Positions 9,077 to 32,189 of a DNA stretch of 32,189 nucleotides are shown in pieces; the first letter of the stretch is position 1, and every line of letters starts with the position of its first letter. Position numbers and translations under genes: made by a program. The stretch is from Candidatus Omnitrophota bacterium (GTDB lineage Bacteria > Hinthialibacterota > Hinthialibacteria > Hinthialibacterales > JAKPRU01), in NCBI GenBank assembly GCA_029570205.1, contig JAKQSI010000042.1:116936-149124 (forward strand). The letters are read 5' to 3'. Under the pieces are notes generated by a model. The model saw only the letters and a list, made by a program, of their open reading frames with translations. It searched no databases and was not told where the DNA came from.

Positions 9077-9226
9077 GCGATGTCACCCTGTCCACTCACG
9101 TGTCCTGATCTCTTCTTTTCGGACCGATTGAGGTCAGGTAGACTGGAAATGTCGCTTGTGGGTGATGCCGGGCGCGGTGCGGTATGGTTGGCGCCACAAT
9201 TCGTATTCCGGCAAAATGGACCATCT

Positions 9227-10000
9227 ATGAACAGAAATACACAGGTGGAGACAGGTTACCAGGAATGCCCATCGCGTGCGGCCCATGAGATCGAACATGG
9301 AAAAAAATTGGCGCGGGGAGATCCCGAGACCATTTGGGGATGGGGTTCACCTGCCGGGCGTGTCCGGGCGCAGCGACGTGCCCAACTGATTGCCGGCGGC
9401 GCACAACTTCGGCCCGGGGTTCGCGCCCTGGAGATCGGATGTGGGACAGGATTGTTTACCGAAATGTTTGCCGCAACCGGAGCCGACCTTGTTGCCGTAG
9501 ATATCTCCGCGGAATTATTGGCTAAGGCCCGCGCGCGAAACCTTCCGCCCAATCAAGTCATCTTTCTTGAAAAAAGATTTGAGGATTGCGGGGTCGATGG
9601 TCCCTTCGATGCCGTAATCGGATCTTCTGTATTGCACCATCTCCATATAGAGTTCGCACTGGACAGGATATGTGACCTTCTCAAACCCGGCGGGCAAATC
9701 AGTTTTGCCGAGCCGAATATGTTGAATCCGCAAGTGTTTTTAGAACGAAAGCTACCCTTTTTGCGCAACCGCTTCTGGTATATTTCTCCGGATGAGACTG
9801 CATTTGTCCGGTGGTCATTCGCCGTTCTTCTGAAAAAGCACGGTTTCCAGGATGTCCGTATCGTGCCGTTTGACTGGGTTCACCCGGCGATCCCCGCTCA
9901 CCTCATCCAAGTCATGTCCGCTTTGGGGCGCAGCCTTGAGTGTATCCCGATTCTGCGTGAGTTCTCCGGCTCCTTATTGATTCGTGCATTGCGGCCCTGA
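9227..10000 (+). CDS. Class I SAM-dependent methyltransferase
   Basis: The 257-residue protein opens with GDPETIWGWGSPAGRVRAQRRAQLI, a segment typical of one group of type 11/12 methyltransferases. Motif I is at residues 68-75 (LEIGCGTG), followed by DLVAVDISAELLAKARAR, FDAVIGSSVLHHL and LLKPGGQISFAEPN. The C-terminal region (FWYISPDETAFVRWSFAVLLKKHGF) is that of lipid or quinone-type substrates, but the actual acceptor is unknown. The frame is open back to 9002; the ATG at 9227 is chosen because recognisable sequence begins soon after it, though only a weak TGGA precedes it. It is divergent from the fusion gene and 223 nt before the GT39-like gene. Confidence 0.85.
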   Translation: MNRNTQVETGYQECPSRAAHEIEHGKKLARGDPETIWGWGSPAGRVRAQRRAQLIAGGAQLRPGVRALEIGCGTGLFTEMFAATGADLVAVDISAELLAKARARNLPPNQVIFLEKRFEDCGVDGPFDAVIGSSVLHHLHIEFALDRICDLLKPGGQISFAEPNMLNPQVFLERKLPFLRNRFWYISPDETAFVRWSFAVLLKKHGFQDVRIVPFDWVHPAIPAHLIQVMSALGRSLECIPILREFSGSLLIRALRP

Positions 10001-10223
10001 ACTGAATGCTTCATCTGTTGACGGAAACACGATTTTCATCCTGTCTCCGCAGCAAAGTTAATCCATTCTCGGATACCCACGTAAAATGAAACTGTTGAAC
10101 GGCCCCCCTGATTGGCACACAAGTCTCTGCGGTGTGATCTTGACATGCACTTGGCCTCGTGTCACAAATCTTCATTGGGTTCATCGAAGGTCTAACCCTC
10201 CACGAAAAGGATCCGGTTCTCCA

Positions 10224-18086: not shown

Positions 18087-18377
18087 TCATATTCCGGGGA
18101 GCATTGCGAGTATATTTCGATTGTTGCAGTTGCGGGTCATATTGATTTCGGAATCCGCAAAGTAGAACAGCATGATCCGATAATTCAAAATCATTGCGGA
18201 AAAGCGTCCTGCGGGTATGTTGCCTACTCGCTTCGATTGAGGGATGTCTGCCTCGGCCGGCAGGGGGATACCTATGAACAAGCGCCGGTCGGTGTCAAAT
18301 CCTGCACAGCCCGCAATGTCCGATTGCGTGGGATGGCCCTCCTTCCAACGGGTGCGGGGCGCGTCAGTTAATTTCAT
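18087..18377 (-). pseudogene. Short frame, possible remnant of a GyrI-like effector-binding domain
   Basis: A 96-codon frame overlaps the end of the regulator gene by 14 nt and reads FDTDRRLFIGIPLPAEAD, then IPQSKRVGNIPAGRFSAM. The IPAGR(F/Y)S/A pattern after a strand and loop recalls the GyrI-like / AraC C-terminal effector-binding fold, which is normally about 150 residues. The first 20 and the last 35 residues do not look like the family, and the ATG at 18377 has no well-placed ribosome site (a G-run lies one base before it). I see it as a fragment or chance frame; the resemblance is from memory only. Confidence 0.25.
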
Positions 18378-19737
18378 ACCCCTGTTTTGTGTACCGTTGG
18401 ATTTTATAGAGCAGAGCGCGGCGACTGATACCGAGTTCTCTGGCGGTTCCACTGCGGTTAAAGGCGTTTTTGCGCAGTGTCTTGAGAATAGCCTCACGTT
18501 CAATATCTTCCAGTTTTCGACGGTTCGCGGGCAGGTTATCGTCGGCATTATCCTCCGAGAAGGCTGCCAGAATACGCTTGGGGAGATGCTCGCGGATAAT
18601 CAAGTCGCCTCGTGCCATCAGGGTGGCACGCTCCATGGCATTGCGCAGTTCGCGGACATTCCCCGGCCACTCATACTCTTCCAGACAGCGGACAACCGAA
18701 GGCGAAAGGCGCGGCCGGCCATCCATGAAAGCGGCAGCAAAATAATTCGCTAGGGGGATGATATCCTCGCGTCGTTCGCGCAATGGAGGGACGTAAATTT
18801 CCATGACATTCAGGCGGAAAAACAGGTCTTCGCGGAACTTGCCCTGTTCGACTTCTTTCTCCAGGTTGCGGTTGGTGGTCGCCAGAATGCGGACATTGGT
18901 TTTGCGAACCAGGTTGGATCCGACCCGCTGGAATGTGCCGTCCTGGGTAATTTGAAGGAGTTTGGCCTGTAACGGGGGCGACATTTCACCGATTTCATCG
19001 AGCAAAATGGAGCCGCCATCCGCCTCTTCGAAACGTCCGATGCGCTGTTGGGACGCTCCGGTGAACGAACCGCGTTCATGGCCGAACAGTTCGCTCTCCA
19101 GGAGGGCTTCCGGGATTGTGGCACAATTCACCTTCACCAGAGGTTTACTCACGCGCCCACTGCGACGATGGATAAAATCGGCCAGGACCTCTTTTCCAAC
19201 TCCACTCTCGCCTGTGATGAGAATCCGGCTGTCGGAGGGCGCAACAAACGCGGCCTCCCGAAAGATTTGGAGAGTTAGAGGGCTTTCCGCGATGACATCT
19301 TCCGGGAGGTCCGGCCGTTCCAGACCCTGAAGAGGGGCGGATTCGCAGATTCCGATCGCTTTTTGAACGGAGGACAAGAGCTCGTCCAGGTCGATGGGTT
19401 TTTCCAGGTAATTGACGGCTCCATCCTGCATGGCCCGAACCGCGTCGCGGATATCGGCATAAGCCGTGACCAGGAGGACCGGCAAGGTCGGGAACCGCTT
19501 CCGAGCCAGCCGTAACGTATCCAGGCCGGACATGCCGGGCATACGTACATCGGAAATTATGATGTGGATATCCTCCTCCCGGTTTAGAATCTCAATTGAT
19601 TCCTCTCCGGATGCTGCGGTCAAGACTGTAAATCCCTGGCCGGATAGGAACGACGCCAGCAGGCTTCGCTGTCCGCCATCGTCATCCACGATCAGGATTC
19701 GATATTTGGAACGTTCTTCCTGAAATTCACCTGTCAT
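18364..19737 (-). CDS. NtrC-family sigma54-dependent response regulator
   Basis: The 457-residue protein has three domains. The receiver (residues 12-130) has the acidic pair in VDDD, the phosphoacceptor D63 (IIISDVRMPG), T91 and K113. The AAA+ domain (about 150-385) has Walker A GESGVGKE (176-183), the sigma54-contact loop ESELFGHERGSFTGA (214-228), Walker B LLDEIGEM and the arginine-finger region FREDLFFRLNV. The C-terminal Fis-type helix-turn-helix is at about 425-450 (RSGTARELGISRRALLYKIQRY). The usual GAFTGA loop is GSFTGA here. Its ATG overlaps the kinase stop (ATGA), so the pair is coupled. As the last gene of the secretion operon, it may control that operon with RpoN. Confidence 0.95.
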   Translation of the reverse strand: MTGEFQEERSKYRILIVDDDGGQRSLLASFLSGQGFTVLTAASGEESIEILNREEDIHIIISDVRMPGMSGLDTLRLARKRFPTLPVLLVTAYADIRDAVRAMQDGAVNYLEKPIDLDELLSSVQKAIGICESAPLQGLERPDLPEDVIAESPLTLQIFREAAFVAPSDSRILITGESGVGKEVLADFIHRRSGRVSKPLVKVNCATIPEALLESELFGHERGSFTGASQQRIGRFEEADGGSILLDEIGEMSPPLQAKLLQITQDGTFQRVGSNLVRKTNVRILATTNRNLEKEVEQGKFREDLFFRLNVMEIYVPPLRERREDIIPLANYFAAAFMDGRPRLSPSVVRCLEEYEWPGNVRELRNAMERATLMARGDLIIREHLPKRILAAFSEDNADDNLPANRRKLEDIEREAILKTLRKNAFNRSGTARELGISRRALLYKIQRYTKQGYEIN

Positions 19738-21257
19738 TCTGGGTTGCCTTTGGATAGAACATTGAAGCCGAAAATACGGAAAACGGCTCCAGGTTCTTCG
19801 GTTGGAACATACCGGATTTCCCAGCCATGAGCCAAAACAATCTGACTCACCACGGCGAGGCCCAAGCCGGTTCCATGTTCCCGCGTAGTGAAATATGGTT
19901 GAAAAATCTTGCTCTGGTTTTCTACGGGCACTCCCGGACCGTTGTCCCGGATTTCAAGAAAGGGTTTTTGTCCTTTTTCCTGCCCGAATCGGATCCGGAT
20001 CAACCCTCCCTCATCCACGGACTGAATCGCATTCAACAGCAGGTTGAAGAGGACCTGCCGGAAAAACGATTCGTCTGCCTCAATGGTCGTATCCGGGATT
20101 TCAACTTTCAGGTCGATTTTTTTGTCGCCGAGGTCGGATAACAGGGCCTGTTCGACCTCCCTGGTTACGGCGGCCAGATTGACGGGAGTCGGTTTCGGCT
20201 CACACGGCTTGGAATAGTTAATGAACTCGTTGAGTTGTGCGGTGATCTGATCGACCTCTTCCGTAATCTGTAAGGCCTGGGTTTGGGTTTCGGGTCGCGT
20301 GCCGGTATCGCGTGCGATGACCTGCGCCAGCCCGCGAACAAGATTCAGCGGATTGCGTGTTTCATGCGCCAGACCGGCGGCAGCGAGATTCATTCTGCGT
20401 AAATGGACGTTCATTTCGTTGGCCCGTACCAGGCGCACCTGCAAATCCGACGAGCGAACCAGACTGCGCCACGCCAACCCGAACCCTAACAGGGCCACAA
20501 GGGTAGACGCGACAATGGGGATTCGCAGCCAGACATCTTTCTTAATAGCCAAATCATATTGTTTTGTGGACATCTCAATCGCGAATCCATGAAGTCCCGC
20601 TTTTTGAACTAACGATTGGTATTCTTCCTCATCCATTCCTCGCGGGCGTCGAATTCGTGGTCCGGGCCGGTTCCTTTCCCGGCGAACATGGTCTCCGGCT
20701 CGGGTAGCCGATTCAATGTTGCTGTCGGCAGGTTCCGGGGGCAAAGGTCGGGGTTCGTTATCCTCAAAGGCTTCCATTTCCGGCGGAGGCGGCCGCATCC
20801 GGTGAAGAATGCCTCGATCATTTTCCTGAAGGATCAGAGTGGGGGTGTCCCAATCCTCGAGTGGGGATTCCACTTCCAGATCGACAAGACTGACCATCCA
20901 AACGGAGTTTTTGTCCCACTTTTCTCCAGCCTCAATCAGACTGTCCAAATCGGAGATGTCGATATCGCCCGCCGAACACACAATTTCACCATAAGCATTA
21001 AACAGTATAACGGACTTGAAGTCTTCGGAGCGGACAAGTTCGAGCAAGGCGGCTTCCAGTCGAGGTTGAAAAACAACACCCCCGAAAAAACGCTGGGACC
21101 GGATTACTACAGCGAGAGTATTGGCGATATCACGTCCCCGATTGCGCAGGGCGGTCCGGCCGTCCGCAACGACTCGCTGATGCTCCAGGTACTGCCACGC
21201 CACGACCGCCAGCCAGAAGATTGTCAACACAATGGGGATCACCCGTTTGAGAATCAT
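19734..21257 (-). CDS. Membrane sensor histidine kinase
   Basis: The 507-residue inner-membrane kinase has two transmembrane segments (about residues 5-22 and 246-265) that enclose a periplasmic sensor region of about 220 residues. That region contains a Pro/Glu-rich and an Arg-rich stretch (about 155-205). After the second segment come HisKA with H298 (GLAHETRNPLNLVRG), and the ATPase domain with the N box FNLLLNAIQSV (404-414), G1 DNGPGVP (438-444), an F box IFQPYFTT and G2 HGTGLGLAVV. It probably autophosphorylates and passes phosphate to D63 of the next gene's product. Its ATG at 21257 overlaps the secretin stop as ATGA, so the sensor is part of the secretion operon. The signal sensed is unknown. 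Confidence 0.95.
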   Translation of the reverse strand: MILKRVIPIVLTIFWLAVVAWQYLEHQRVVADGRTALRNRGRDIANTLAVVIRSQRFFGGVVFQPRLEAALLELVRSEDFKSVILFNAYGEIVCSAGDIDISDLDSLIEAGEKWDKNSVWMVSLVDLEVESPLEDWDTPTLILQENDRGILHRMRPPPPEMEAFEDNEPRPLPPEPADSNIESATRAGDHVRRERNRPGPRIRRPRGMDEEEYQSLVQKAGLHGFAIEMSTKQYDLAIKKDVWLRIPIVASTLVALLGFGLAWRSLVRSSDLQVRLVRANEMNVHLRRMNLAAAGLAHETRNPLNLVRGLAQVIARDTGTRPETQTQALQITEEVDQITAQLNEFINYSKPCEPKPTPVNLAAVTREVEQALLSDLGDKKIDLKVEIPDTTIEADESFFRQVLFNLLLNAIQSVDEGGLIRIRFGQEKGQKPFLEIRDNGPGVPVENQSKIFQPYFTTREHGTGLGLAVVSQIVLAHGWEIRYVPTEEPGAVFRIFGFNVLSKGNPE

Positions 21258-22471
21258 GAACGTGTCCTTGATTGGTTCTTCCGGCTTTTCTTCGTGTTGG
21301 AGTTCTTACTGGTGTTGTCATCCGAGGGCGCGGGTTTTGTGTCGGATGTCGGCTCGTCCGATGATTTCTTGACCTGCGCTTCGGGCAAGCCATCCATGAA
21401 TTTCGTGAATTGGTCTTCCGGGAAGGCCTGAGGCATCAGTTCGGACTCGCTCCGTTCTTTCGCGGTGACATCCACCAGTTTCTCCGGGCCTTCCACAACA
21501 TAAGGCGTGAGGAAGATCAACAATTCCGTTTTCTCGCTCCCCTTGACTTTCCGCTGGAAGAGCAGTCCCAGGCCGGGAATGTCTCCCAACACCGGGACCT
21601 TGTTTCGCGTCTCCGTCGTATTATCCGACATCATACCCCCAATCACAACGGTTTGGCCGTTTGGTGTGACAACGACGGTGTCGGCGGATCGCTTGGCAAA
21701 CACCGGCGAGTTGATGGTATCGGAGATCGGCACGGTTTCGTCCGTGATCGTAGAGATTTCGGGAGCCAGAATCATTTCGACGAGGCCCTCTTTTGTGATA
21801 AACGGAGTCACCCGGAGAATAATCCCGATATCTTCGTACTCGACCGTATTGATGGTCTGACCGTCCGAGGTGACCCGACTGTTTGTAATGAAAGGAACTT
21901 CCTTACCGACGGTAATCACGGCCTCCTGATTGTTGCGCGTAAGGATCGATGGACGAGACAGCACTTCCAGTTTTCCGGCCTCCTGAATAGCCCGAAGAGT
22001 AACATTAACATCGTCCTCGAGGAGTTTGTAAAAGCTGCCTCGCGACTCTGCCGCCAACCCGTACGCGGTTTCAAATACGTTGGAACCGGGGCGGTCGCCA
22101 TTGATGTCAAGCATTCCCTCTACGCCGATATCCACATCGTCCCGATAGGTTACCTCAGCAAATACCACTTTGATCAGTACCTGCTGAATCGGACGGTCGA
22201 GGCTCTCGATGATCTGCCGGATATGCTCGTTGGAGTAATCATCCGAAATCACGATAATCGACCGACTGTCCCGATCCGCCTCGATAACGGCTTCGCCGAT
22301 CGTACCCTGGCCGTAATAAATCCGCTGTACGGACGAAGAACTGAGCGAACTGGAGCTGCCAAACTGGCTTTGCCCAAACCCCATGCTCCCTCCAGTCCGC
22401 TGAGCCGAAACCGACCGGGATACCACCGTGCCGGACAGAACGAATAATATCACAACAACCAGACGCTTCAT
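21254..22471 (-). CDS. gspD: Type II secretion secretin, C-terminal (channel) half
   Basis: The 405-residue protein has its own Sec signal peptide (residues 1-23, LVVVILFVLSGTVVSRSVSA). A Ser/Gly-rich stretch (24-50) leads to only the second half of an N domain (GTIGEAVIEADRDSRSIIVI, then IIESLDRPIQQVLIKVVFAEV). The secretin pore domain follows, with LSRPSILTRNNQEAVITVGK (171-190), PFITNSRV, GIILRVTPFI and the hallmark VPVLGDIPGLGLLF (292-305). The tail from about 350 is low complexity, polar and basic. Ordinary GspD is 600-700 residues in one chain; here N0-N2/N3 come from the gene just upstream. AAGGAAGGGAGG precedes the ATG at 22471, so this half is translated on its own. It should form the outer-membrane ring. 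Confidence 0.93.
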   Translation of the reverse strand: MKRLVVVILFVLSGTVVSRSVSAQRTGGSMGFGQSQFGSSSSLSSSSVQRIYYGQGTIGEAVIEADRDSRSIIVISDDYSNEHIRQIIESLDRPIQQVLIKVVFAEVTYRDDVDIGVEGMLDINGDRPGSNVFETAYGLAAESRGSFYKLLEDDVNVTLRAIQEAGKLEVLSRPSILTRNNQEAVITVGKEVPFITNSRVTSDGQTINTVEYEDIGIILRVTPFITKEGLVEMILAPEISTITDETVPISDTINSPVFAKRSADTVVVTPNGQTVVIGGMMSDNTTETRNKVPVLGDIPGLGLLFQRKVKGSEKTELLIFLTPYVVEGPEKLVDVTAKERSESELMPQAFPEDQFTKFMDGLPEAQVKKSSDEPTSDTKPAPSDDNTSKNSNTKKSRKNQSRTRS

Positions 22472-22492
22472 TGTTCGGCCTCCCTTCCTTGG

Positions 22493-23944
22493 CTAATCTG
22501 AACTTCGAATCGACTGCGAACCCGACGAATCCGTGCTCACCGTTCGATTGCTGAGCGTATTCGCATTCGTGTCCGATGTCTCGGACCTGTTTGTGGACGA
22601 GTACTCGTTCTCAAATATATTCCGTAGAATCTCGGCTACATTGTCGACATCCGCATATTCCAAGTGATATACGAACACCTTCTTCTTCCGCGCGGGATCG
22701 CAATCCAGCTGCTCGACCATCTGGGCAATCTGGACCATTGTTTCATGCGCGGCCAATACCAACACAGAATTGGTACGCGGATCTGCGACGCATCGAACCG
22801 TGGTTTGCTCCAATTTGCGATCACTAGTCGTAGTTTGCTCGGAACCGCCTCCCATCCCGGGCATCATTCCGGGTCCCCCGCCGCCCGGGCCGAAACGCGG
22901 GGCAAACGGGTTTTGGCTGCTGCTCGACTCATCAGGAAACAACTCCTGAATTTGCTCGGCCAGTTCCGACGCATCTGCCTGCTTCAAAGTGAACACACGG
23001 ACCTCTGTGAGGTCCTCCGTTGGAGTGTCTACCTCCTTCACAATCGCCTCGATTGTGGGCATCAGATCCGCAGGGGCATTCACAATCAGTGAGTTCGTCT
23101 TGTCGTCGGCCACGGCTACGACACGGGCGGCTGCCCGCCGAGCCTCACTGCTGGTCTGCGGTTCACTCGCACCGCCCATCGCACCCATTTCGCTACCCGG
23201 GCCCCCTAAGCGCCCAAACCGAAAGCCGGTCCGCTGATTCCAGCGGCTGCTCGAATCCTCGCTTTGAAACAGTTGCGTAATCGTTTCAGCCAAATCCGAC
23301 GCATCGGCATATTGCAGAAGAAAGACACGGATCGAGGCGATCGTTGAAATCGAGGTATCCAGCGATTCAATGATCTTTACCATACGATGAACGTTGTTTT
23401 GCGTGTCGGTAATGATGACGGCATTGCTGCTCTCGTTTGCGCTCATGCCCGCATACGACGGCAGCAAAGGTTGCAGGTTCTCGATCAGCTTCACGGCATC
23501 GACATAACGGACCGGGACAATCTGTGTAACCATTTCATCCGTTCGCGGAATGGCCTCCGCCACATTCCCCGTTTGGACCGGAATGTCTTTTTGCTTGGCC
23601 TCCTCCCTCTTTACTATTACAAGGGTCCGGCCCCGCCGGATTGCCGCATAGCCTTTCTCATATAAAACCGTGTTAAGCAGATCCACGGCTTCTTCCTGCG
23701 TGAGGGGTTGCCGGCTCACTACGTCTACCTCCGCCTCCACATTCACCTGCTTGACAATCGCAAATCCGACTGCTTGACTGAAATAGTCCAGTACTGTGTC
23801 CAGGCTGGCGCCCCGGAAATTGAGACGGATCCCGTTACCGCCTTGCGCTTGGGCGGAGGGGGTGGCGTCCTCAAGGGCCACCGCATCGGTTACGTCCGGA
23901 ATAACCAGCGCAATAAACAGTATAACCGCGAAGCCGGATTTCAT
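22493..23944 (-). CDS. Secretin N-domain protein (N-terminal half of split GspD)
   Basis: The 483-residue exported protein (signal peptide about 1-22) consists of secretin periplasmic domains and has no pore domain. N0 is at about 38-115 (IRLNFRGASLDTVLDYFSQA). Three N1-type modules follow: 138-200 (VPVRYVDAVKLIENLQPLL), 204-308 (VFLLQYADASDLAETITQLF with TNSLIVNAP) and 310-420 (VFTLKQADASELAEQIQELF with TNSVLVLAA), the last two with Ser/Gly-rich loops. It ends with the first half only of another module (VFVYHLEYADVDNVAEILRN) and a Ser/Thr/Asn-rich tail. The matching second half begins the next gene, 21 nt on. The two products should assemble into one periplasmic vestibule. The start ATG overlaps the GspC-like stop (ATGA). 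Confidence 0.9.
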   Translation of the reverse strand: MKSGFAVILFIALVIPDVTDAVALEDATPSAQAQGGNGIRLNFRGASLDTVLDYFSQAVGFAIVKQVNVEAEVDVVSRQPLTQEEAVDLLNTVLYEKGYAAIRRGRTLVIVKREEAKQKDIPVQTGNVAEAIPRTDEMVTQIVPVRYVDAVKLIENLQPLLPSYAGMSANESSNAVIITDTQNNVHRMVKIIESLDTSISTIASIRVFLLQYADASDLAETITQLFQSEDSSSRWNQRTGFRFGRLGGPGSEMGAMGGASEPQTSSEARRAAARVVAVADDKTNSLIVNAPADLMPTIEAIVKEVDTPTEDLTEVRVFTLKQADASELAEQIQELFPDESSSSQNPFAPRFGPGGGGPGMMPGMGGGSEQTTTSDRKLEQTTVRCVADPRTNSVLVLAAHETMVQIAQMVEQLDCDPARKKKVFVYHLEYADVDNVAEILRNIFENEYSSTNRSETSDTNANTLSNRTVSTDSSGSQSIRSSD

Positions 23945-24567
23945 AATTCTTTTCTCTCCTGTTTTCGTCTCTCCATCATTCTTTGCAATAAATCGCTGCC
24001 GGCTCCCTGCGCCGCCGGTTCGGACTTTGTCACGGCAGGCTCGGCGCTGTCCCGACGGTTCCCCGGTTCATGCCCCGGCAATGTTTTCCGCGCCGGCACG
24101 GCGGCCACTTCCCATCGACCGCCATCCTGCCTGACTATGCGCGACCCGACCGGGAGATCCAGTGACGTCCCGGAGCTTTGAAGCGAAACATGTCCGGGGT
24201 CTATCACCGTAACGGTGCATCCCGCGATCGTGTCGCCCACGCTGAGTACCCCTTGATAGTCCGCATCGCTTCCCTCGAAGAAGGCATACGTTCCCGCTCC
24301 GGTATCGATCATACCGACGTAGATTATCTCCTCTACTGTCGGCGTGCGGGCGACCGGGGAAGGCAGCGATTCTGCGCTTACATGTTTCCGATTGGGATTA
24401 AAGATATTTCGACTGATAATTAACTGAAAAGACTCGTACTTCTGCGCCGAATGGTTGTCTTTCGGTTCGGCTATATCCTGGCAGACACTGTGCCCGCCAA
24501 GAACTGCCGTTATACACATCATACGAACCAAAGCCGCAATCAAGTCTCTTGATATTCCCCTGTTCAT
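23941..24567 (-). CDS. GspC-like T2SS inner-membrane/periplasmic protein
   Basis: The 208-residue protein has one N-terminal hydrophobic segment (about residues 8-28), then a periplasmic HR-like domain with the landmark IISRNIFNPNRK (about 50-61) and a small beta domain (IYVGMIDTGAGTYAFFEG, VLSVGDTIAGCTVTVIDPGHV). This is the pattern of GspC/PilP proteins, which link the inner-membrane platform to the N0 domain of the secretin. There is no PDZ domain; the C-terminal 60 residues are polar and end in a charged helix (LLQRMMERRKQERKEL). It is immediately before the secretin N-domain gene and overlaps both neighbours by ATGA, as expected for partners. The assignment rests on position plus the RNIF motif. 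Confidence 0.75.
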   Translation of the reverse strand: MNRGISRDLIAALVRMMCITAVLGGHSVCQDIAEPKDNHSAQKYESFQLIISRNIFNPNRKHVSAESLPSPVARTPTVEEIIYVGMIDTGAGTYAFFEGSDADYQGVLSVGDTIAGCTVTVIDPGHVSLQSSGTSLDLPVGSRIVRQDGGRWEVAAVPARKTLPGHEPGNRRDSAEPAVTKSEPAAQGAGSDLLQRMMERRKQERKEL

Positions 24568-25103
24568 GATATTTCCTCCTCCTTCACAAATTGGACACCG
24601 CTGAATGTAACATCGATAGCCAGCGATTGACCGCCGTCGTCCCGACTGATGATTGCAACAGTTTCAATTTTCAGACACAGCGGGTCAATCTCCAGTTCGT
24701 AAAGAAATCGGCTGATTTCAGAAATTCCTCCCTGAGCGGATGCGCGACACTCGAGAGTATTGTAATGTTCCTCGTGGGTTTTCCATAATTGCTTCAAAGA
24801 AACCAAAGTGATCCGGCTGGCGGTCACCCAACGGTCAACGGATTTGAGCACCTGATTTTCCGCCTGTGACGCATCCTCTGACAGCGCGTCGTGTTGCATT
24901 TCTTGCCAACGTTCTCGGATTTCGCGCTCCCGGGTGAGCAGTAAATGCCCTCGGCTGAGAGTGTTGTTAAGGCGTGTTATCCCTTCTGCGCGGTATTTCC
25001 AGAAGTGGAGACACGGAGTAACAATGAGTCGGTCACCCACCAGGCCGGCGAGACAGAGAATGGCGGCAAGAAGAAGTAATCGTTCGCGATTGGGGGTTGT
25101 CAT
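24564..25103 (-). CDS. gspM: GspM/PilO-like T2SS protein
   Basis: The 179-residue bitopic protein has an N-terminal transmembrane helix (about residues 8-27, LLLLAAILCLAGLVGDRLIV), a long charged coiled-coil-like segment (35-90) and a C-terminal ferredoxin-like fold (LECRASAQGGISEISRFLYEL, then LAIDVTFSGVQFV). That is the layout of GspM and PilO, which pair with GspL/PilN in the assembly platform. Sequence identity in this family is low, so the call is from topology, length and position between gspL and gspC. GGGAG lies 10 nt before the ATG at 25103, and 4 nt separate it from the gspL stop. Confidence 0.75.
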   Translation of the reverse strand: MTTPNRERLLLLAAILCLAGLVGDRLIVTPCLHFWKYRAEGITRLNNTLSRGHLLLTREREIRERWQEMQHDALSEDASQAENQVLKSVDRWVTASRITLVSLKQLWKTHEEHYNTLECRASAQGGISEISRFLYELEIDPLCLKIETVAIISRDDGGQSLAIDVTFSGVQFVKEEEIS

Positions 25104-25107
25104 GCTG

Positions 25108-26511
25108 TCATTCTCCCGCCCAACATAAAGTTAATCGGAATTGCGTCGGGCTTCTGCCCTGAACTTGCTGGACTTGTAACTGCGTGACCCGTCTGTCCTG
25201 ATTGAGCCGATCAAGAACCTTCAGCAATTCCGTGCTGCCACTTGCATAGCCCTCGCACGAAATAGCCGAGCCGTCTTTAATTTCAACGGCTTTTGCCCAT
25301 GCGGAGCCTTCTTCAGGAAATGCCTCCGTAAGGGTCAGAATTGCGTTCAAGGTCGGGATGCTGTCGCCGAACCAGGGCCTGAACAAACGGACCTTATCCT
25401 GTAGCGCTTCGATTTCGGAGACCTGAGTCTTGATGGCGCCCCATTCGGACTCTAGTCGTGCGAGTTGCATGTGTTGCCACAGGAAGGCAAGCATGGCGAC
25501 AAGGACGACTACCGCGCCGATTCCACCAAAGAAGAGATTGCCACGCGATGACATTCTGGAAACAATACGCTGGAACGAACCTGTCTTCGCAGGAAGAAAC
25601 TCAAACAGGCGGTCCTGACCGTTCAGGATGCGCGATAATGTAACATATAGGGGCCACGCTCCGGGGGCATTGCTGCCGACGGGATCAGGCGCCATGTCGA
25701 TCCTTGCGGCCGGAATGAATGGTCGTATCCAGTCCACGAGGGCGGACTGGAAACGGGACCGCCAGGGTTCGACCCCCTGTATAACAATTGTGCCGATCAA
25801 TTCGCGGACCGGGGACGGTAGTTCACTCAATGTGAGGCGTATTTCGCGCAACACAGCATCGTCTGGATCGCCGGTGTGCGGATCCCCGTCGCCGTTTTCT
25901 GACGCAAGCCATCGCAGCGTGACGACTCCCCCGCCGCCGACCACCGTGACATCGATGCCTGCCTCACGTTGTTGTACGCACAGGACTCCTTCGTCCTGAG
26001 GTAGCGGATGAGGAACCGGAACTCCAACGGTAATACTAATCGGCCGTAGTTGGGCTATGTTGCACACCGCCTCGAGTGCGCGAACGTAGGTCAATGGAAT
26101 TGCCAGGATCGTAACATAGCGCTTTCCATCAGGGGCGCTAAATGTGGAAATGGATATCGAGAGGTCCTCCAGAGAAAACGGGAATTCCCGCTCTGCATGG
26201 AGATGGATAAAGCTCTGTTGATCGTCGCTCCCCAAGTCCGGTAATTCGATGCAATGCTTGAGTAGCCATTTCAATGGAAGGCATATTACGCAACGTGTTT
26301 CACGGATCCCCGCCTCCTGTAATCTGTTGCGGATCTCCTGACCGAGAAGTTCGGGCGTTGCGGCCAATGGGTCAAGAACCAAAGGAACCTGTATCTGCTT
26401 CTTTATCTGTGTGCCGTCGCCGGTGCGTGACACGAGAGCGGCCCGCAGACATTGGTCACCGAACTCGATCCCCAAAAGGGTCTTATAGGCTACTTTCCGC
26501 TGCGCAGTCAT
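25108..26511 (-). CDS. gspL: GspL-like (PilM-PilN fusion) T2SS assembly-platform protein
   Basis: The 467-residue protein has a cytoplasmic actin-like PilM-type domain (residues about 10-320: LLGIEFGDQCLRAALVSR, CVICLPLKWLLKHCIELP, FIHLHAEREFPFSLEDL), one transmembrane segment at about 345-366 (GGIGAVVVLVAMLAFLW) and a periplasmic PilN-like domain (coiled coil, then SAISCEGYASGSTELLKVLDRL). This is the standard architecture of GspL, which recruits the ATPase GspE and contacts GspM. The start at 26511 is chosen because it makes an ATGA overlap with gspK, like most other junctions here; an ATG at 26529 and a start at 26568 are alternatives. Its partner GspE is disrupted in this window. Confidence 0.85.
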   Translation of the reverse strand: MTAQRKVAYKTLLGIEFGDQCLRAALVSRTGDGTQIKKQIQVPLVLDPLAATPELLGQEIRNRLQEAGIRETRCVICLPLKWLLKHCIELPDLGSDDQQSFIHLHAEREFPFSLEDLSISISTFSAPDGKRYVTILAIPLTYVRALEAVCNIAQLRPISITVGVPVPHPLPQDEGVLCVQQREAGIDVTVVGGGGVVTLRWLASENGDGDPHTGDPDDAVLREIRLTLSELPSPVRELIGTIVIQGVEPWRSRFQSALVDWIRPFIPAARIDMAPDPVGSNAPGAWPLYVTLSRILNGQDRLFEFLPAKTGSFQRIVSRMSSRGNLFFGGIGAVVVLVAMLAFLWQHMQLARLESEWGAIKTQVSEIEALQDKVRLFRPWFGDSIPTLNAILTLTEAFPEEGSAWAKAVEIKDGSAISCEGYASGSTELLKVLDRLNQDRRVTQLQVQQVQGRSPTQFRLTLCWAGE

Positions 26512-27917
26512 CTCGTTGACGCCCTCCATTCCGACAGTTGAGAGCGGATATCCTTTCCCAATGCCCATCCGAGATCGGTCCTGTCCCTCCGGTAAACCGC
26601 CTTTGCCTGCCCGTCACTGATATCCAGGACATAATAGATTCTTCGGCAGCCCCTCCCGTATTGCCCCACGGCGGCCACGTCTGCACTGAATTGGTAGGTA
26701 TGAGTAGTCAAATAGGGGCCGGCCTGTATAGCGGCGTCTTCGTCCAGTACCTGTGCTACCCAGGCGACGGAATGCAGATTCTTCGTGTGCCCCAGGCGGT
26801 AGGCGACGAGGGCGGAGGCACAGGACGAACCGATTCCCGGTATGCAGCTCAGAACCTCCTCGCAGGCGGTATTGACGTTGATCGGGACGATCTCCGTTTC
26901 CATATCTGACCCCGCGCCGGACTGTGATCCGGAATCCGCACCTGAAACGGTAAGAGAATCGGCAAGTGTATCACATTCATCCGGCGTCATCTTGCTGCGG
27001 ATATAGAACTCAAGGATGCTTCGGAACTCCGCCCCCGCGCCGAGTTGCGACAAAATATCATTTGCTCGAGTTTCACCAAGGGTCTCCCTCAGTAGACTAC
27101 GCAGGTCCTCTTGATCTTTAGTATTCACATCAACGACGGACCCGCCGTCCGCGGTTTCTACAGGTTGGCTACTTCGACTATAAACCGTGAGGTACTCCAC
27201 GATTCCGGGATCCAATTCCCCGTCCTGATTGTCACTCGGCGGCGACGCTTCACCGTCGTTCTCGTTCGGGTCCAAAATGCCGTTGAGGTTCGTGTCTTCC
27301 CCGAACAATATCTCATCCTTCGCGCCATAAACCATCTTCAACTCGAGTACCGTCTCGAACGGGCCGTTCTTACAACGGTAGGCCGGTTTTCGGAGAGTAT
27401 AGGTTTCCGCTTCAGCGCCGTTTTCCGAGACTTGACTGTCTGCGTCACGCCAGTCTACAATTGCCGCGGCACATTCCGGAGTCATTCTGGGGAGGTTCGC
27501 CAGCATTTCGACTGTAGCCGTATTCAGATTCAGTTTTGAGCATTCGTCTACCAGGCTGAACACAGGCATTGTGTCCGGCTGTGCATCGGGATGACGGCCC
27601 AGCAGCCAATAGGTTGCGTCGCCGACAGGCACAGCCTCCGCTTTATATTCATCATTGTCCACATCCGGCATCGTCCCCGGTTCTTCGAGATTCTCGAGCA
27701 CGTAGCACACGTAGCGCATTGCGCTTTCCGCCGCCTGCTCTGCCTGAATTCCGGCAACGGTGGAATCCGCGGAACGGTATTGGAGGACAATAATTTGCCC
27801 GAACACAAGGACCAGCGCGACCAGACCGGCGCATATCCACAGGACGACGATCAGTACCGCCGCCTCTCTGTAGCCGAGGTCCGGTTTCTGATATCGGAGA
27901 TAGTGTGCGCGAATCAT
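26508..27917 (-). CDS. gspK: GspK minor pseudopilin with calcium-loop insert
   Basis: The 469-residue minor pseudopilin has an N-terminal hydrophobic helix (about 19-45, AAVLIVVLWICAGLVALVLV). Its domains include helix-hairpin-helix-like SAM parts (KLNLNTATVEMLANLPRMTP near 130 and INVNTACEEVLSCIPGIG near 355). GspK caps the pseudopilus tip with GspI and GspJ. An insert near residues 205-240 carries DTNLNGILDPNE and DNQDGELDPG, both EF-hand/dockerin-like calcium loops (DxNxNGxxDxxE). GspK is longer than the usual 320-350 residues. The glycine expected before the hydrophobic helix is not at its usual place: the sequence reads YREAAVLIV, so processing may be after an Ala or after G15. ATGA overlaps join it to gspJ and gspL. 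Confidence 0.92.
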   Translation of the reverse strand: MIRAHYLRYQKPDLGYREAAVLIVVLWICAGLVALVLVFGQIIVLQYRSADSTVAGIQAEQAAESAMRYVCYVLENLEEPGTMPDVDNDEYKAEAVPVGDATYWLLGRHPDAQPDTMPVFSLVDECSKLNLNTATVEMLANLPRMTPECAAAIVDWRDADSQVSENGAEAETYTLRKPAYRCKNGPFETVLELKMVYGAKDEILFGEDTNLNGILDPNENDGEASPPSDNQDGELDPGIVEYLTVYSRSSQPVETADGGSVVDVNTKDQEDLRSLLRETLGETRANDILSQLGAGAEFRSILEFYIRSKMTPDECDTLADSLTVSGADSGSQSGAGSDMETEIVPINVNTACEEVLSCIPGIGSSCASALVAYRLGHTKNLHSVAWVAQVLDEDAAIQAGPYLTTHTYQFSADVAAVGQYGRGCRRIYYVLDISDGQAKAVYRRDRTDLGWALGKDIRSQLSEWRASTR

Positions 27918-28717
27918 CTGCCTGCACCTCCGGTTTCATCCGCGCCTTGGGAGCCGGTACCCGTTGCTCCGTCTGCTTGCTGGTCTTGCCACGAGGGAGC
28001 GGCCCCGCCGGAATTCGTGCTTTCCTCCGCCTCCGTCGATATGGCGTGTGACACGACTGGAACGGTAACTTGAATTGTCGATTGGCTTGGTCCGCGGGGC
28101 GGTCCTGTACTCGCCGAATTGTCGGGGACGATCGTGACACGGATCGCCGCAGGAAGCGCCGGATCTTCCGCGGACGAATCCCAGCAGGTTCGCCAGGAAG
28201 TGCCGTCATAGTACTCGAAAATAAGACTACTGATACGCTCTAAAAGAGGCTCGTATTCCGGTTCCTCCTGTACCGTGGACAACAGATTCCGCGTGACTCC
28301 GCGCAGAAGGTAAAGCCCCTCTTTGGCGCCGGGGCAATCCAGAGACGAAAGAGTATATTCAATTTGTTGAATATCCCCCCAGGGATCGCCTTCGGTTAAC
28401 GTTCCCGATGTGGAGAATAGAATCAATTCAGCGCCAGACTGGGAAACCATGCTCTCCTGCCCGCCGATCATGTCACCGATCAGAAGGCCATTGGGCGCGG
28501 CGGCATTGGCTAAGTCACGTTTAATTATTTCAATCGCATATTGCCGGGACAACTGCGTATCCTCGGCCTGATAGGCACGGTCGCGCAAGTGAATTGCATT
28601 AGAAAACACTGCGTTAATGGATAGGACAAGGATGGCCCCGATGGCCGTTGCCACCAGCAATTCAACCAGGGTTACACCGTGCCGAGAACCCCAGGAATGG
28701 GCGCTATCACGAATCAT
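27914..28717 (-). CDS. gspJ: GspJ minor pseudopilin
   Basis: The 267-residue protein has a type IV prepilin leader with cleavage after G14 (SRHG, then VTLVELLVATAIGAILVL), including the Glu at mature position 5. The globular part has the GspJ-like order of a helix (YAIEIIKRDLANA), LILFSTSG, IEYTL and LYLLRGVTRNLL. It is larger than GspG/H/I. The last 40 residues are Gly/Ser/Gln-rich and look disordered. It is a minor pseudopilin of the tip complex. Its start overlaps the gspI stop and its stop overlaps the gspK start, both as ATGA. Confidence 0.92.
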   Translation of the reverse strand: MIRDSAHSWGSRHGVTLVELLVATAIGAILVLSINAVFSNAIHLRDRAYQAEDTQLSRQYAIEIIKRDLANAAAPNGLLIGDMIGGQESMVSQSGAELILFSTSGTLTEGDPWGDIQQIEYTLSSLDCPGAKEGLYLLRGVTRNLLSTVQEEPEYEPLLERISSLIFEYYDGTSWRTCWDSSAEDPALPAAIRVTIVPDNSASTGPPRGPSQSTIQVTVPVVSHAISTEAEESTNSGGAAPSWQDQQADGATGTGSQGADETGGAGR

Positions 28718-29139
28718 GATGACACCTCCGCCACCACTAGGGTACTTAAGCGAACATTCTGCTCCCGGCCCTGTACCGGGAAATACACAATCAGGGTCAA
28801 GAGATAGAAGTTGTCGTCCGTCCAGGGTTGCTTAAGCAATGCCCACCGATAGTCGGCCCACTCCGATCCAAAATTACCCTTTGCCGATGAATACTGCCAC
28901 TGCCGCGTTACAGACAGCTCGTTCAGGTACTGCTCGGCCAGACGAACGGCTATCGATTGGCGTTCGGCCAATACGGAGACACCGTTCGCGATGCGGATAC
29001 CTTTCAACGTCACGGGTATCACGGTCGCAGCCAGAACCATAGCCGCAAGAACTTCCGGGAAGGTGAAACCCGCTGCGCGGAATAACACCGCGTTAGAGGC
29101 AGAGCCGAGCCGATTGTCCTTACGAGATGCCGCGTTCAT
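28714..29139 (-). CDS. gspI: GspI minor pseudopilin
   Basis: The 141-residue protein has a leader that ends RAAG, then FTFPEVLAAMVLAATVIPV, with Glu at mature position 5 and the Pro before it that replaces the usual Leu-Leu pair. The remaining part (SIAVRLAEQYLNEL, WADYRWALLKQPW, LLTLIVYFPVQGRE) is like the GspI/PilV type. I chose ATG 29139 because GAGGAGG lies 6 nt before it; it overlaps the gspH end by 20 nt. The leader is long (about 23 residues). A start at 29175 is less likely. Confidence 0.9.
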   Translation of the reverse strand: MNAASRKDNRLGSASNAVLFRAAGFTFPEVLAAMVLAATVIPVTLKGIRIANGVSVLAERQSIAVRLAEQYLNELSVTRQWQYSSAKGNFGSEWADYRWALLKQPWTDDNFYLLTLIVYFPVQGREQNVRLSTLVVAEVSS

Positions 29140-29659
29140 TCTGTGCCTCCTCTTCCGTGAGAACGGACCATTCATGGCCGATAAGCGGGCGTGCGACTAT
29201 AATTCTGTCATCGCCGTGTCGAAAGCGGATGTATTGCAGACCATCGCTTTCCATGATTCCATCGGGCCGGAAAGTGATTGTTGCGACGCCGTTAACCAAA
29301 GGTTGGCCTGGGTATAGTTCCATCGCCGTATCCTCGTCGAGATAGAACTGAACTTGCCGATCGGTTGCCCACTCATAACCTGTCATGGCATGCAGACCGT
29401 AGCGGTTGTTCCGTGTATCCATCCACAGCTCCAGCGGCACACCGCTCGCTACAGACTCGCGAAACGCGTATCGAATCAGCGACAGCAGTCGGTGAGCCTC
29501 TCCGTCCAGTGCCTGGCCGCGGAAAAATCGGGACAGTCTCGGCGCGGATGCCACCGCGACCGCGCTTAAAATAGCCATCACCAGGATGAGCTCCATGAGC
29601 GTGAATCCAGGCGAACCGACCGGCTTATTGTTCGTTCTGCTTATAGTTTGTGATATCAT
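29120..29659 (-). CDS. gspH: GspH minor pseudopilin
   Basis: The 179-residue protein has a prepilin leader ending SPG, then FTLMELILVMAILSAVAVASAPRL with Glu at mature position 5. A GspH-like body follows: LLSLIRYAFRESVASGVPLEL, then WMDTRNNRYGL, VQFYLDEDT and ATITFRPDG. The ATG at 29659 is chosen because GGGAGG lies 5 nt before it; a GTG two codons earlier is the other choice. Its beginning lies inside the end of gspG (35-nt overlap). It joins the GspG filament to the tip complex. Confidence 0.9.
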   Translation of the reverse strand: MISQTISRTNNKPVGSPGFTLMELILVMAILSAVAVASAPRLSRFFRGQALDGEAHRLLSLIRYAFRESVASGVPLELWMDTRNNRYGLHAMTGYEWATDRQVQFYLDEDTAMELYPGQPLVNGVATITFRPDGIMESDGLQYIRFRHGDDRIIVARPLIGHEWSVLTEEEAQNERGIS

Positions 29660-30077
29660 CGTCACCTCCCGACCGGCCGTCCGGCCCCATGGAGACTAGA
29701 TCAAAGCCTTGCGGATTGCGTTTGCCGGGGTATTCATACAAATAAGCATTTCCCCACGGATCCAACGGAATGTCCTCGATGTACGGGCCGCGCCAGTTTT
29801 TGGCATAACTCGGCTGCTCTACCAGATCCCGCAGACCGTTGCTTCCTTTTGGGTAGGTCCCGTTATCCACCTCGAACGAGTCCAGCACTATTTCCAGATT
29901 AGCGATCTGCGTCTGGGCGGCGGTAATTCTCGCCTGTTCCGAACGTCCCGCAAATTTTGGAACGACGATGGCCGCCAGGGTTGCCAAAATAACGAGAACG
30001 AGAAGCATTTCCACCAGGGTGAAACCGCCTTGCGCGCAATGTCGTTGTTGTATGCATTGTGTTTTGACAGAAGCCAT
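29625..30077 (-). CDS. gspG: GspG major pseudopilin
   Basis: The 150-residue major pseudopilin has a leader ending AQGG, then FTLVEMLLVLVILATLAAIVV (Glu5 present), and the conserved body of GspG: VPKFAGRSEQARITAAQTQI, LDSFEVDNGTYPKGSNGL, WRGPYIEDIPLDPWGNAYLY and a C-terminal calcium-loop region MGPDGRSGGDDDI. It polymerises into the pseudopilus that pushes substrates through the secretin. ATG 30077 is chosen because GGAGG precedes it by 8 nt; ATG 30092 is an alternative. The acidic C-terminal loop is the known calcium site of the family. Confidence 0.96.
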   Translation of the reverse strand: MASVKTQCIQQRHCAQGGFTLVEMLLVLVILATLAAIVVPKFAGRSEQARITAAQTQIANLEIVLDSFEVDNGTYPKGSNGLRDLVEQPSYAKNWRGPYIEDIPLDPWGNAYLYEYPGKRNPQGFDLVSMGPDGRSGGDDDITNYKQNEQ

Positions 30078-30097
30078 TTCTATGTCCTCCATACCGG

Positions 30098-31324
30098 CTA
30101 TTTGATGTAGTCCTGAATCGTGAAAATGGGGATCACCATCCCAATGAAAATTGTCCCGATGAATCCCGCGATGAAAAACAACATGAGCGGCTCAGCTAAT
30201 GCGACCGCTGAGCGCAACTGCCGTTCCAATTCCTGCTCCGTCGTTTCTGCAATCCGGATGAGTTCTTTGTCCAGGCGGCCGGTTTCTTCGGCTACAGATA
30301 TCATTTCCAGTACGGCGTTTGAAAATAGTTGACTACAATTCAAGAAGCTGCCGGAAAGTCGGTCCCCCTTCTTGACGCGCTCGATGCCATCGGCGACGGC
30401 ATCGGCCAGGATGCGATTTGGGATGGATTTCCGCGCAACATTCAAGCCCTGAATTAGAGGGACACCGGCGGCGAGCAGGGTTCCCAACATGCGGCAGAAT
30501 CGAGCCATGGCGAACCGCGCCATCAGCGGCCCGATAATGGGTAAGCGAAGAAACATGCTTTCGCGCACGCGAATCCCGCGCTCTGTAGAGAGCCATTGGC
30601 GGAGGAAGTACGCGAGAACGGCTACCAGAACGACGACAAACGGCCCCCAATCTCGGATCAGACCGCTGGTCCCGACAATCGCCCGCGTGATGAGGGGCAA
30701 TTCGGCGCCGAAACTCTTGAACATGGATTGAAATCTCGGAATGAAGAAGACCAGGAGAAAAATCAATACGGAGATCGCGAGGACCAGGAGAACAGACGGG
30801 TAAATGAGGGCGGCCATCAACCGAGAGCGGAGGTCTCTGTCACGGCTTTGAAACTCGGCGATCTGGTTGAGAACTAAATCGAGAAAACCCCCTGTTTCCC
30901 CTGCCTGTACCATGGCGATATAGACTCGGGGGAAAATATCAGGGAATTGGGCCATGGAGTCGGCCAGTGTTGTGCCGTCGATGACACGATCATGAATAGC
31001 CTTCCATTGTTCTGCTGTTGTGGGATTACCGGCCTCTCGGTAGAGGAGGGCGAGCGAGCGGCTGAGCGGGATCCCGGAGGCGAGTAAACTGGAAAGAAGG
31101 CGGGTAAAATGCTCTAATTCCTTAAAAGTCACTTTTCCGTTACGCCATGGAAGGCGGAGCCACGGGCGCTGTGGCGCAGCCGGGTGAGTCAATTCGGAGA
31201 TGCGGATCGGTTGCCAGCCGCGCGCAAGGATCTGATTAAATACATCCTGACGGCCCGGCGCCTCTACCTGGCCCTCGGCGAGGGTCCCATCCGTTTGCAA
31301 TGCACGATAATGAAAGTGAACCAT
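30098..31324 (-). CDS. gspF: GspF inner-membrane platform protein
   Basis: The 408-residue protein has the two repeated T2SSF domains (residues about 65-190 and 270-395) and three transmembrane segments: around 170-195 (YPSVLLVLAISVLIFLLVFF), 220-240 (FVVVLVAVLAYFL) and 375-400 (LMLFFIAGFIGTIFIGMVI). N-terminal FHYRALQTDGTLAEGQVEA is the usual opening. GspF is the core of the inner-membrane platform and contacts GspE and GspL. The ATG at 31324 follows gspE by 30 nt with GGAG 11 nt before it. The gene is intact even though gspE upstream is cut by an insertion element. Confidence 0.96.
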   Translation of the reverse strand: MVHFHYRALQTDGTLAEGQVEAPGRQDVFNQILARGWQPIRISELTHPAAPQRPWLRLPWRNGKVTFKELEHFTRLLSSLLASGIPLSRSLALLYREAGNPTTAEQWKAIHDRVIDGTTLADSMAQFPDIFPRVYIAMVQAGETGGFLDLVLNQIAEFQSRDRDLRSRLMAALIYPSVLLVLAISVLIFLLVFFIPRFQSMFKSFGAELPLITRAIVGTSGLIRDWGPFVVVLVAVLAYFLRQWLSTERGIRVRESMFLRLPIIGPLMARFAMARFCRMLGTLLAAGVPLIQGLNVARKSIPNRILADAVADGIERVKKGDRLSGSFLNCSQLFSNAVLEMISVAEETGRLDKELIRIAETTEQELERQLRSAVALAEPLMLFFIAGFIGTIFIGMVIPIFTIQDYIK

Positions 31325-31354
31325 GGTGACACGGTCTCCATAATCCGTTGTCGG

Positions 31355-32052
31355 CTACCACCATTCGAATTGCTCATCTTTGCTGACCCGGAGCACTTCC
31401 TGTACCGTGGTCGCGCCTTCCAGGACGAGGCGCCAGCCGTCTTCGCTTAACGACTTCATCCCCGCGCGAGAGGCGGCCAGCCGAATTTCGCCGGCGGAAT
31501 GTTCGTGCAGGACCATGTCGCGGATTTCCGTATTGAGCATCATCATTTCGAACACGGCGCGGCGGCCATGGAATCCTGTATGGCGACACTGTTCGCATCC
31601 GACAGCGCGGAACACGGTCCGGTCATCCGGCAAGCCGAGACGTTTCCGCAGGGCCAGGGTTCGTTCCGATGTGTCTTCCGTTTTGCAGTGGGGGCAGAGC
31701 ACGCGAACAAGACGCTGGGCTATTACGGCTTCGAGTGACGAGGCAACCAGGTAGGATTCGACCCCCATATCCACCATCCGTGTAATCGCTCCGGGGGCGT
31801 CATTTGTATGAAGGGTCGAAAAGACTAAATGGCCGGTTAATGATGCTTGAACGGCGATCTGCGCGGTCTCCTGGTCGCGGATTTCTCCGACGAGGAGGAC
31901 ATCCGGGTCGTGTCGAAGGATTGAACGCAGACCGCGCGCAAAAGTCAGTCCGGTTTTTTCCGAGACCTGGATCTGGTTGATTCCTTTCAACTGGTATTCG
32001 ATGGGGTCTTCAATGGTAATGATTTTTCGTTCGGAATCGTTAATTTCGCTTA
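31355..32052 (-). pseudogene. gspE: GspE secretion ATPase, 3' remnant cut by an IS630-type element
   Basis: The 232 codons left encode the C-terminal half of the T2SS ATPase: the Asp box ([12 protein letters not shown]), Walker [21 protein letters not shown], the His box [17 protein letters not shown], the conserved [15 protein letters not shown] and a zinc site CPHC...CEQC. In family proteins the Walker A loop (GPTGSGKTTTLY) should lie about ten residues before SEINDSERK. Here the homology stops exactly at the codon before AGC (32050-32048), at a TA (32051-32052). Further upstream the minus-strand frame meets TGA codons and no Walker A appears. A TTG at 31990 could be mistaken for a start but lies inside the conserved domain. 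The N-terminal part may lie beyond the insertion. Confidence 0.93.
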
Positions 32053-32084
32053 CTAATCCAAACCATATATAGTAGGCATGTGGC

Positions 32085-32112
32085 TTGACTAACGAATGGA
32101 TTCGGGTAGAAT
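32085..32112 (+). promoter_or_regulatory. Putative transposase promoter
   Basis: TTGACT (32085-32090) and TAGAAT (32107-32112) are 16 nt apart, just before the transposase ATG at 32121; each is a 5-of-6 match to the sigma70 consensus. The space between the -10 and the ATG is only 8 nt, so a transcript from it would be nearly leaderless. Confidence 0.45.
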
Positions 32113-32120
32113 GTGTAATT

Positions 32121-32189
32121 ATGACAAAATCGGATGCACGTTCGCTGAGTCAAGAGAGTCAAGAGGACCTTCGGATGCGGGTGGTGCGC
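32121..32189 (+). CDS. IS630-family transposase, first 23 residues
   Basis: Only the beginning is visible: [18 protein letters not shown], then MRVVR. This matches the start of IS630-type transposases, which commonly read M-x-K-(S/P)-(D/L)-A-R-x-L-S-x-(E/A)-x-(Q/R)-E-x-L-R before the helix-turn-helix domain, as I remember them. The rest, including the DDE catalytic domain, lies beyond the window. It is oriented opposite to gspE. Confidence 0.75.

What the first reader, a model, noticed from the sequence alone, without database searches (positions are those of the whole stretch)
21254..23944. T2SS secretin split inside an N domain into two separately exported proteins
GspD is normally one chain of N0-N1-N2-N3-secretin. 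Here the upstream gene holds N0, three full N1-type modules and only the first half of a further module (VFVYHLEYADVDNVAEILRN), then a polar tail. The next gene has its own signal peptide, a Ser/Gly-rich linker and only the second half of such a module (DSRSIIVI...IIESLDRP), then the pore. The break falls in the long disordered loop that these modules carry. The two chains would have to complement each other to rebuild one N domain in a periplasmic ring. Both reading frames are clean, and the second has a strong ribosome site and real signal peptide, so this is not a simple frameshift.
Basis: partly seen in the sequence, partly recalled or inferred. Interest (0 to 1): 0.8.

Follow-up and report, generated by a model that had tools for sequence, protein, structure and literature searches.

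The report
Secretin pore gene split mid-domain
In a group of little-known bacteria spread over several phyla, the outer-membrane pore of the type II protein export machine is made from two separately exported proteins, because one ancient event cut its gene inside a folded domain, and both halves of that domain have been kept ever since.

Summary
In a gspE-F-G-H-I-J-K-L-M-C operon, the place of gspD is taken by two genes. D1 (483 aa) carries a signal sequence, N0, three N modules and the beta-alpha half of a fourth. D2 (405 aa) carries its own signal sequence, the beta-beta-alpha half and the secretin pore. I found this arrangement in 36 distinct loci: the window's phylum (every ortholog found) and records labelled Verrucomicrobiota, Lentisphaerota and Sumerlaeota. 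D1 and D2 each form a single clade in independent trees. In both, the sister sequences are single-chain GspDs (705 and 721 aa); the 705-aa one ends an E-to-C operon of the same order. In these fused sisters the same two half motifs are joined by a loop of about 55 residues inside one intact N3 module. So one gene was split once, in the disordered, pore-facing N3 loop. Both halves are as conserved as intact modules. The frame between the genes and the stop codon vary, which excludes frameshift, readthrough and sequencing error. Reassembly of one N3 domain from the two chains is strongly implied but not shown; the available fold model has low confidence. Split secretins are known only from rhizobial-type T3SS, with a different origin. 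New variant of a known kind.

The parts
22493..23944 (-). D1 (gspD N-part), 483 aa: signal sequence, N0, three full N modules, first half of the last N module, polar tail
23873..23944 (-). D1 signal sequence region (residues 1-24)
   Evidence: sequence; poorly conserved, dN/dS 0.50
23627..23824 (-). N0 domain (residues 41-106)
   Evidence: PF21305, E 3e-10
23348..23536 (-). N1 module (residues 137-199)
23021..23332 (-). N2 module with long Gly/Ser loop (residues 205-308)
22697..23005 (-). additional full N module with long Gly/Ser loop (residues 314-416)
22607..22690 (-). first half (strand-helix) of the last, split N module (residues 419-446)
   Evidence: Secretin_N positions 1-38 together with tail; 2.64 bits/column; dN/dS 0.04
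22496..22606 (-). D1 polar Ser/Thr/Asn tail = left half of the former module loop
   Evidence: 1.92 bits/column
22479..22490 (-). ribosome binding site AAGGAAGGGAGG before D2
   Evidence: sequence
21254..22471 (-). D2 (gspD C-part), 405 aa: own signal sequence, polar linker, second half of the split N module, secretin pore domain, polar C tail
22400..22471 (-). D2 signal sequence (residues 1-24)
   Evidence: hydrophobic peak 3.12 in window, 1.9-3.3 in 36 split loci against at most 1.66 in fused controls
22298..22399 (-). D2 Ser/Gly-rich linker = right half of the former module loop
   Evidence: 1.65 bits/column
22181..22297 (-). second half (strand-strand-helix) of the split N module (residues 59-97)
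   Evidence: Secretin_N positions 26-69; 2.83 bits/column; dN/dS 0.086
21491..21991 (-). secretin pore domain (residues 161-327)
   Evidence: PF00263, E 1.3e-49; genome match
23941..24567 (-). GspC-like protein directly upstream of D1
   Evidence: NF041515 GspC, E 1.7e-4, below its cut-off; conserved upstream of D1
24564..32189 (-). rest of the T2SS operon: GspM (24564-25103), GspL/PilM-like (25108-26568), GspK (26508-27917), GspJ (27914-28717), GspI-like (28714-29175), GspH (29120-29665), GspG (29625-30092), GspF (30098-31324), GspE (31355 onwards, cut by window end)

Best explanation
A single ancestral gspD was split once, in the long disordered loop of its last periplasmic ring module (N3). 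A stop codon, ribosome site and second signal peptide arose within that loop. Shown from sequence: the two genes, their order, their single origin, the fused sister and the conservation of both halves. Inferred: both chains are exported by Sec; D2 forms the outer-membrane pore; D1 carries N0, which docks on GspC at the inner membrane, and the periplasmic rings. In each ring position the strand-helix of D1 and the strand-strand-helix of D2 fold together into one N3 domain, so the secretin is a two-chain ring with 1:1 stoichiometry at the N3 level. The polar tail of D1 and the linker of D2 would hang into the pore, where the N3 loop lies in one-chain secretins.
For: Two-gene form with both half motifs in 36 distinct loci. 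Split form is one clade in the D2 tree (support 100/100) and in an independent D1 tree (97, quick method), both sister to the same fused GspDs L065 and L095. Operon E-F-G-H-I-J-K-L-M-C is followed by one fused gspD in L107 and by D1-D2 in L108 and the window. In fused sisters the same half motifs sit in one module with a loop of about 55 residues that covers all of Secretin_N 1-69, against 1-38 and 26-69 for the split ends. Split halves are as conserved as intact modules (2.64 and 2.83 against 2.58-3.01 bits/column; tails and linker 1.65-1.92); dN/dS is 0.04 and 0.086. The frame between the genes is 0, 1 or 2 and the stop TAA, TAG or TGA. All 36 D2 proteins have a signal-like segment. In the read-through model the split module has the same strand-helix-loop-strand-strand-helix order as intact modules, and alignments to N3+secretin of solved chains start at D1 residue 418-421 and run across the break into D2 (5w68, 9k8v, 5wln, 6ve2).
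Against: The pairing is not shown directly. The read-through model has mean pLDDT 48 (62-74 over the D2 half) and joins the chains covalently; D2 alone gave mean pLDDT 44, about 50-59 over the half, so part of the difference may come from model quality. No expression, export or structural data exist for these organisms. Which module was added in this lineage was not worked out.
Confidence: 0.86

Rival explanations
1. D1 and D2 are separate working proteins that do not share a domain: D2 forms the pore, D1 a stand-alone periplasmic ring, and the two half modules are remnants or serve only as tails.
For: No direct evidence of pairing; fold models are low confidence.
Against: Both halves are kept in every split locus examined and are as conserved as intact modules, unlike the tails and signal sequences; they derive from one module in the sister.
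Confidence: 0.1
2. Partial gene replacement as proposed for rhizobial RhcC1/RhcC2: the pore gene came from another system and the old secretin kept only its N part.
For: This is the published explanation of the known split T3SS secretin (PMC3459982).
Against: D1 and D2 trees have the same sister genes, which are one chain; gene order is preserved; the halves do not overlap but complement within one module.
Confidence: 0.02
3. Sequencing error, frameshift, pseudogene or stop-codon readthrough: the real product is one GspD chain.
For: In the window the two genes are in the same frame, one stop plus seven codons apart.
Against: Frame and stop codon differ among relatives; D2 always has its own signal-like segment; strong purifying selection on both genes; 36 loci. 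A true frameshift case (L105) looks different: no signal peptide and the module continues in another frame.
Confidence: 0.02

Closest known systems
GspD of one-chain type II secretion systems (PulD, XcpQ, GspD; PDB 6hcg, 5wln, 5wq7)
   Same: N0, N modules and secretin domain in the same order, T2SS operon context, high similarity of both parts
   Different: Two genes with two signal sequences; break inside the last N module; one more N module in this lineage
Split T3SS secretin RhcC1/RhcC2 of rhizobia and of Pseudomonas syringae T3SS-2
   Same: An N-terminal part and the pore part of a secretin made as two proteins (PMC3459982, PMC3574062, PMC3973906)
   Different: T3SS not T2SS; the genes are not adjacent and are reported to have distinct origins, RhcC2 from Tad; no half-domain complementarity is described in the passages I read
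TadB/TadC gene fission in the type IV filament superfamily
   Same: Fission of one machine gene into two adjacent genes (PMC6668835)
   Different: Inner-membrane platform protein, split between whole domains

Membership tests
GspD secretin of the type II secretion system | Secretin pore domain PF00263 | tested here: met
   D2 residues 161-327, E 1.3e-49; best NCBIfam hit type_II_gspD
GspD secretin of the type II secretion system | N0 domain followed by ring-building N modules | tested here: met
   D1: PF21305 and four PF03958 stretches; type_II_gspD E 4.6e-69
GspD secretin of the type II secretion system | All domains on one polypeptide | tested here: not met
   Two genes here and in all 36 split loci
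GspD secretin of the type II secretion system | Encoded in a T2SS operon next to gspC | tested here: met
   E-F-G-H-I-J-K-L-M-C-D1-D2; the GspC assignment is weak by score
GspD secretin of the type II secretion system | Forms an outer-membrane ring of about 15 subunits | not testable with these tools
   needs biochemistry or cryo-EM
Rhizobial-type split secretin (RhcC1/RhcC2) | Located in a T3SS cluster | tested here: not met
   Cluster is a T2SS
Rhizobial-type split secretin (RhcC1/RhcC2) | The two parts have different evolutionary origins | tested here: not met
   D1 and D2 trees share the same one-chain sister

The most novel reading that the evidence does not exclude
The split N3 works as a snap joint. 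Pore (D2) and periplasmic shaft (D1) are exported, targeted and perhaps exchanged separately and then lock together through the shared domain, so that assembly, or the mismatch between a 15-fold pore and a lower-symmetry inner-membrane platform, is handled at this joint instead of by flexible linkers in one chain.
Probability: 0.2. Interest if true: 0.85.

Novelty: new variant of a known kind. Interest (0 to 1): 0.65.

Why it matters
Secretins are treated as single chains that run from the inner-membrane docking domain to the outer-membrane pore. Here a natural, old and widespread version is cut inside the domain that links the two, which suggests that the covalent link is not needed. It gives a ready-made two-part system for asking how secretins reach the outer membrane, in what order the rings form, and what ratio of shaft to pore subunits is needed. 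The 15:12 symmetry conflict between pore and inner-membrane partner is an open question for one-chain secretins (PMC10550240). A cut inside N3 instead of between domains predicts a locked 1:1 ratio at that level, which can be tested. It also means that searches expecting one gspD gene can misjudge T2SS in these phyla.

Tried and rejected
Sequencing error, frameshift and readthrough were rejected. Partial gene replacement was rejected. L090 first looked like a fused gene (977-aa open frame) but is split; the long frame is chance. Short N0-containing frames in other bacteria (L099, L100, L103, L104) are short one-chain secretins and L101/L102 are cut by contig ends, so no independent T2SS fission was found among those seven checked; this was not exhaustive. 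AlphaFold2 models were poor (mean pLDDT 44 and 48, shallow alignments), so they are used only as weak support; no coordinates were available to measure contacts. Paper searches for a split GspD in T2SS found only the rhizobial-type T3SS case; the library holds open-licence papers only. In the survey of 387 genomes of L044's phylum only the best few candidates per genome were scored, so the 9 positives are a lower bound.

Full report
WHAT IS THERE. On the minus strand, 23944-22493 encodes D1 (483 aa) and 22471-21254 encodes D2 (405 aa). D1 matches the GspD N0 domain (E 3e-10) and four stretches of Secretin_N; [quoted passage not shown] Both match NCBIfam type_II_gspD: D1 profile positions 1-335, D2 263-600. 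The overlap of about one module means this lineage has one N module more than the model. Submitted alone, the D1 end covers Secretin_N 1-38 and the D2 start 26-69. With a module profile built here, the last D1 stretch aligns at positions 2-41 and the D2 start at 18-62 of 64, against 1-28 plus 26-63 for the two halves of each intact module. The genes are separated by 21 bases holding AAGGAAGGGAGG.

CONTEXT. Upstream in the same direction lie GspE, F, G, H, I-like, J, K, L/PilM-like, M and a GspC-like protein. The GspC assignment rests on a weak but specific hit (NF041515, E 1.7e-4, below its cut-off) and on position. So this is a complete T2SS operon with gspD replaced by D1-D2. The own genome holds five further secretin domains, including a fused GspD-like paralog of about 970 aa.

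HOW WIDESPREAD. All close relatives have the same two adjacent genes. In the window's phylum all 14 held genomes were searched; 10 carry the ortholog and every copy is split, with open frames of 397-437 aa. The split form also occurs in records labelled Verrucomicrobia, Victivallales (Lentisphaerota) and Sumerlaeota, in further members of the phyla of L044 and L042 and in one genome of unnamed group (L064). In total 36 distinct split secretins were analysed. In each, the D1 protein examined ends in the motif VxVYxLxxADxxxVxxILxxMF followed by a Ser/Thr/Asn/Gly-rich tail (L041 is masked by N in this stretch), and D2 begins with a hydrophobic segment, a signal-peptidase-like site, a polar linker and IxxDxxTxSIIVITDEETNxxIxxVIxxLDRPxPQVLIKV. 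The hydrophobic peak of D2 is 1.9-3.3 in all 36 and at most 1.66 in the matching region of 21 fused secretins.

ONE ORIGIN, FROM A FUSED GENE. A tree of the secretin part of 60 proteins puts all 36 split ones in one clade (100/100), with the fused L065 (721 aa) and L095 (705 aa) as nearest relatives. An independent tree of the N0-N1 part gives the same result: 31 split in one clade (SH-aLRT 97, quick method), again with L065 and L095 next. So D1 and D2 descend from the two ends of one gene. The operon of L095 (L107) runs E-F-G-H-I-J-K-L-M-C-gspD in the same order. In L065 and L095 the two half motifs sit in one module, for example QAVFIYSLKNGKAKNLETVLNNLF, a loop of about 55 residues, then QVYVVANEDTNSLMVMTATKNFEVVKQIIADLDRPVPQVLIKV, which covers the whole of Secretin_N. 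The cut fell in that loop. In some Verrucomicrobiota split loci D1 has one module fewer (L052), so the split module is the last one before the pore, canonical N3, whatever the number of others.

WHY THE LOOP TOLERATES A CUT. The alignment of L065 to PulD places this loop around PulD chain residues 286-304, matching the stretch 288-303 that could not be modelled in the PulD cryo-EM structure, which also reports constriction at N3 (PMC6882859). In the phage secretin pIV the N3 domain has a disordered loop pointing into the pore (PMC8563730). Free chain ends there would be solvent-exposed.

ARE THE HALVES STILL ONE DOMAIN? Inferred, with three supports. First, constraint: information per column is 2.64 (D1 half) and 2.83 (D2 half), like intact modules (2.58-3.01) and unlike tail and linker (1.92, 1.65). 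Between this genome and a genus relative dN/dS is 0.04 and 0.086 for the halves against 0.50 and 0.58 for the signal sequences. Second, ancestry from one domain. Third, structure: because the genes happen to be in frame here, the stop could be read as a residue and the joined chain folded. The model is of low confidence (mean pLDDT 48), but the split module shows strand 422-427, helix 433-451, disorder, strand 553-557, strand 562-567, helix 569-582, the same order as the intact modules. Structural alignment to solved secretins that begin at N3 starts at D1 residue 418-421 and continues into D2 (5w68, 9k8v, 5wln, 6ve2, 5tcq). D2 alone gave lower confidence over its half (about 50-59 against 62-74); this is suggestive only.

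NOT AN ARTEFACT. The relative frame of the two genes is 0, 1 or 2 in different loci, the stop is TAA, TAG or TGA, and the spacing ranges from overlap to tens of bases. A genuine frameshift in another genome (L105) looks quite different.

MECHANISM. Most likely both chains are exported by Sec, D2 assembles in the outer membrane, D1 binds GspC through N0, and D1 and D2 join by completing N3, giving a two-chain secretin with 1:1 stoichiometry at that ring. Export, assembly and stoichiometry are inferred. A cut inside N3 differs from one between N2 and N3: each D2 needs a D1 half, so the split would not by itself free the number of shaft subunits from the 15-fold pore.

RELATION TO KNOWN SYSTEMS. 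Split secretins are described for rhizobial-type T3SS (PMC3459982, PMC3574062, PMC3973906), explained as partial replacement by a Tad secretin. I found no report of a split GspD in a T2SS, within an open-licence library. The present case differs by system, by origin (fission) and by the position of the cut. I class it as a new variant of a known kind.

Noticed in passing
L111:955-11583 (G012:C6, same class as the window): A 3542-aa open frame with an N0/N1 match near its start, a secretin match near its end and 29 hits (half or whole) to the N-module profile: a giant secretin with roughly twenty N modules, in a family that lacks the split GspD.
   Followed up: partly
L112:1585-6876 and 6866-11752 (G010:C48): Two overlapping frames of 1763 and 1628 aa full of N modules; the second begins inside a module without an evident signal peptide. 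This looks like one giant secretin broken by a frameshift, real or artefact.
   Followed up: partly
L109:7415-10327 (G000:C38): The window's own genome has a second, one-chain GspD-like secretin of about 970 aa with several extra N modules, downstream of its own F, H, J and K-like genes.
   Followed up: partly
L110:4001-4984 and 4981-6000 (G000:C86): Two short secretin-domain frames (327 and 339 aa) in tandem with a 4-base overlap; function unknown.
   Followed up: no
window 18364-21257: Directly after D2, overlapping its end by 4 bases, lie a sensor histidine kinase and an NtrC-type response regulator (assigned by reading the translations), suggesting regulation linked to the T2SS operon.
   Followed up: no
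L105:1922-3769 (G763:C99): A gspD in another genome broken by an apparent frameshift, useful as a contrast: the second frame has no signal peptide.
   Followed up: yes
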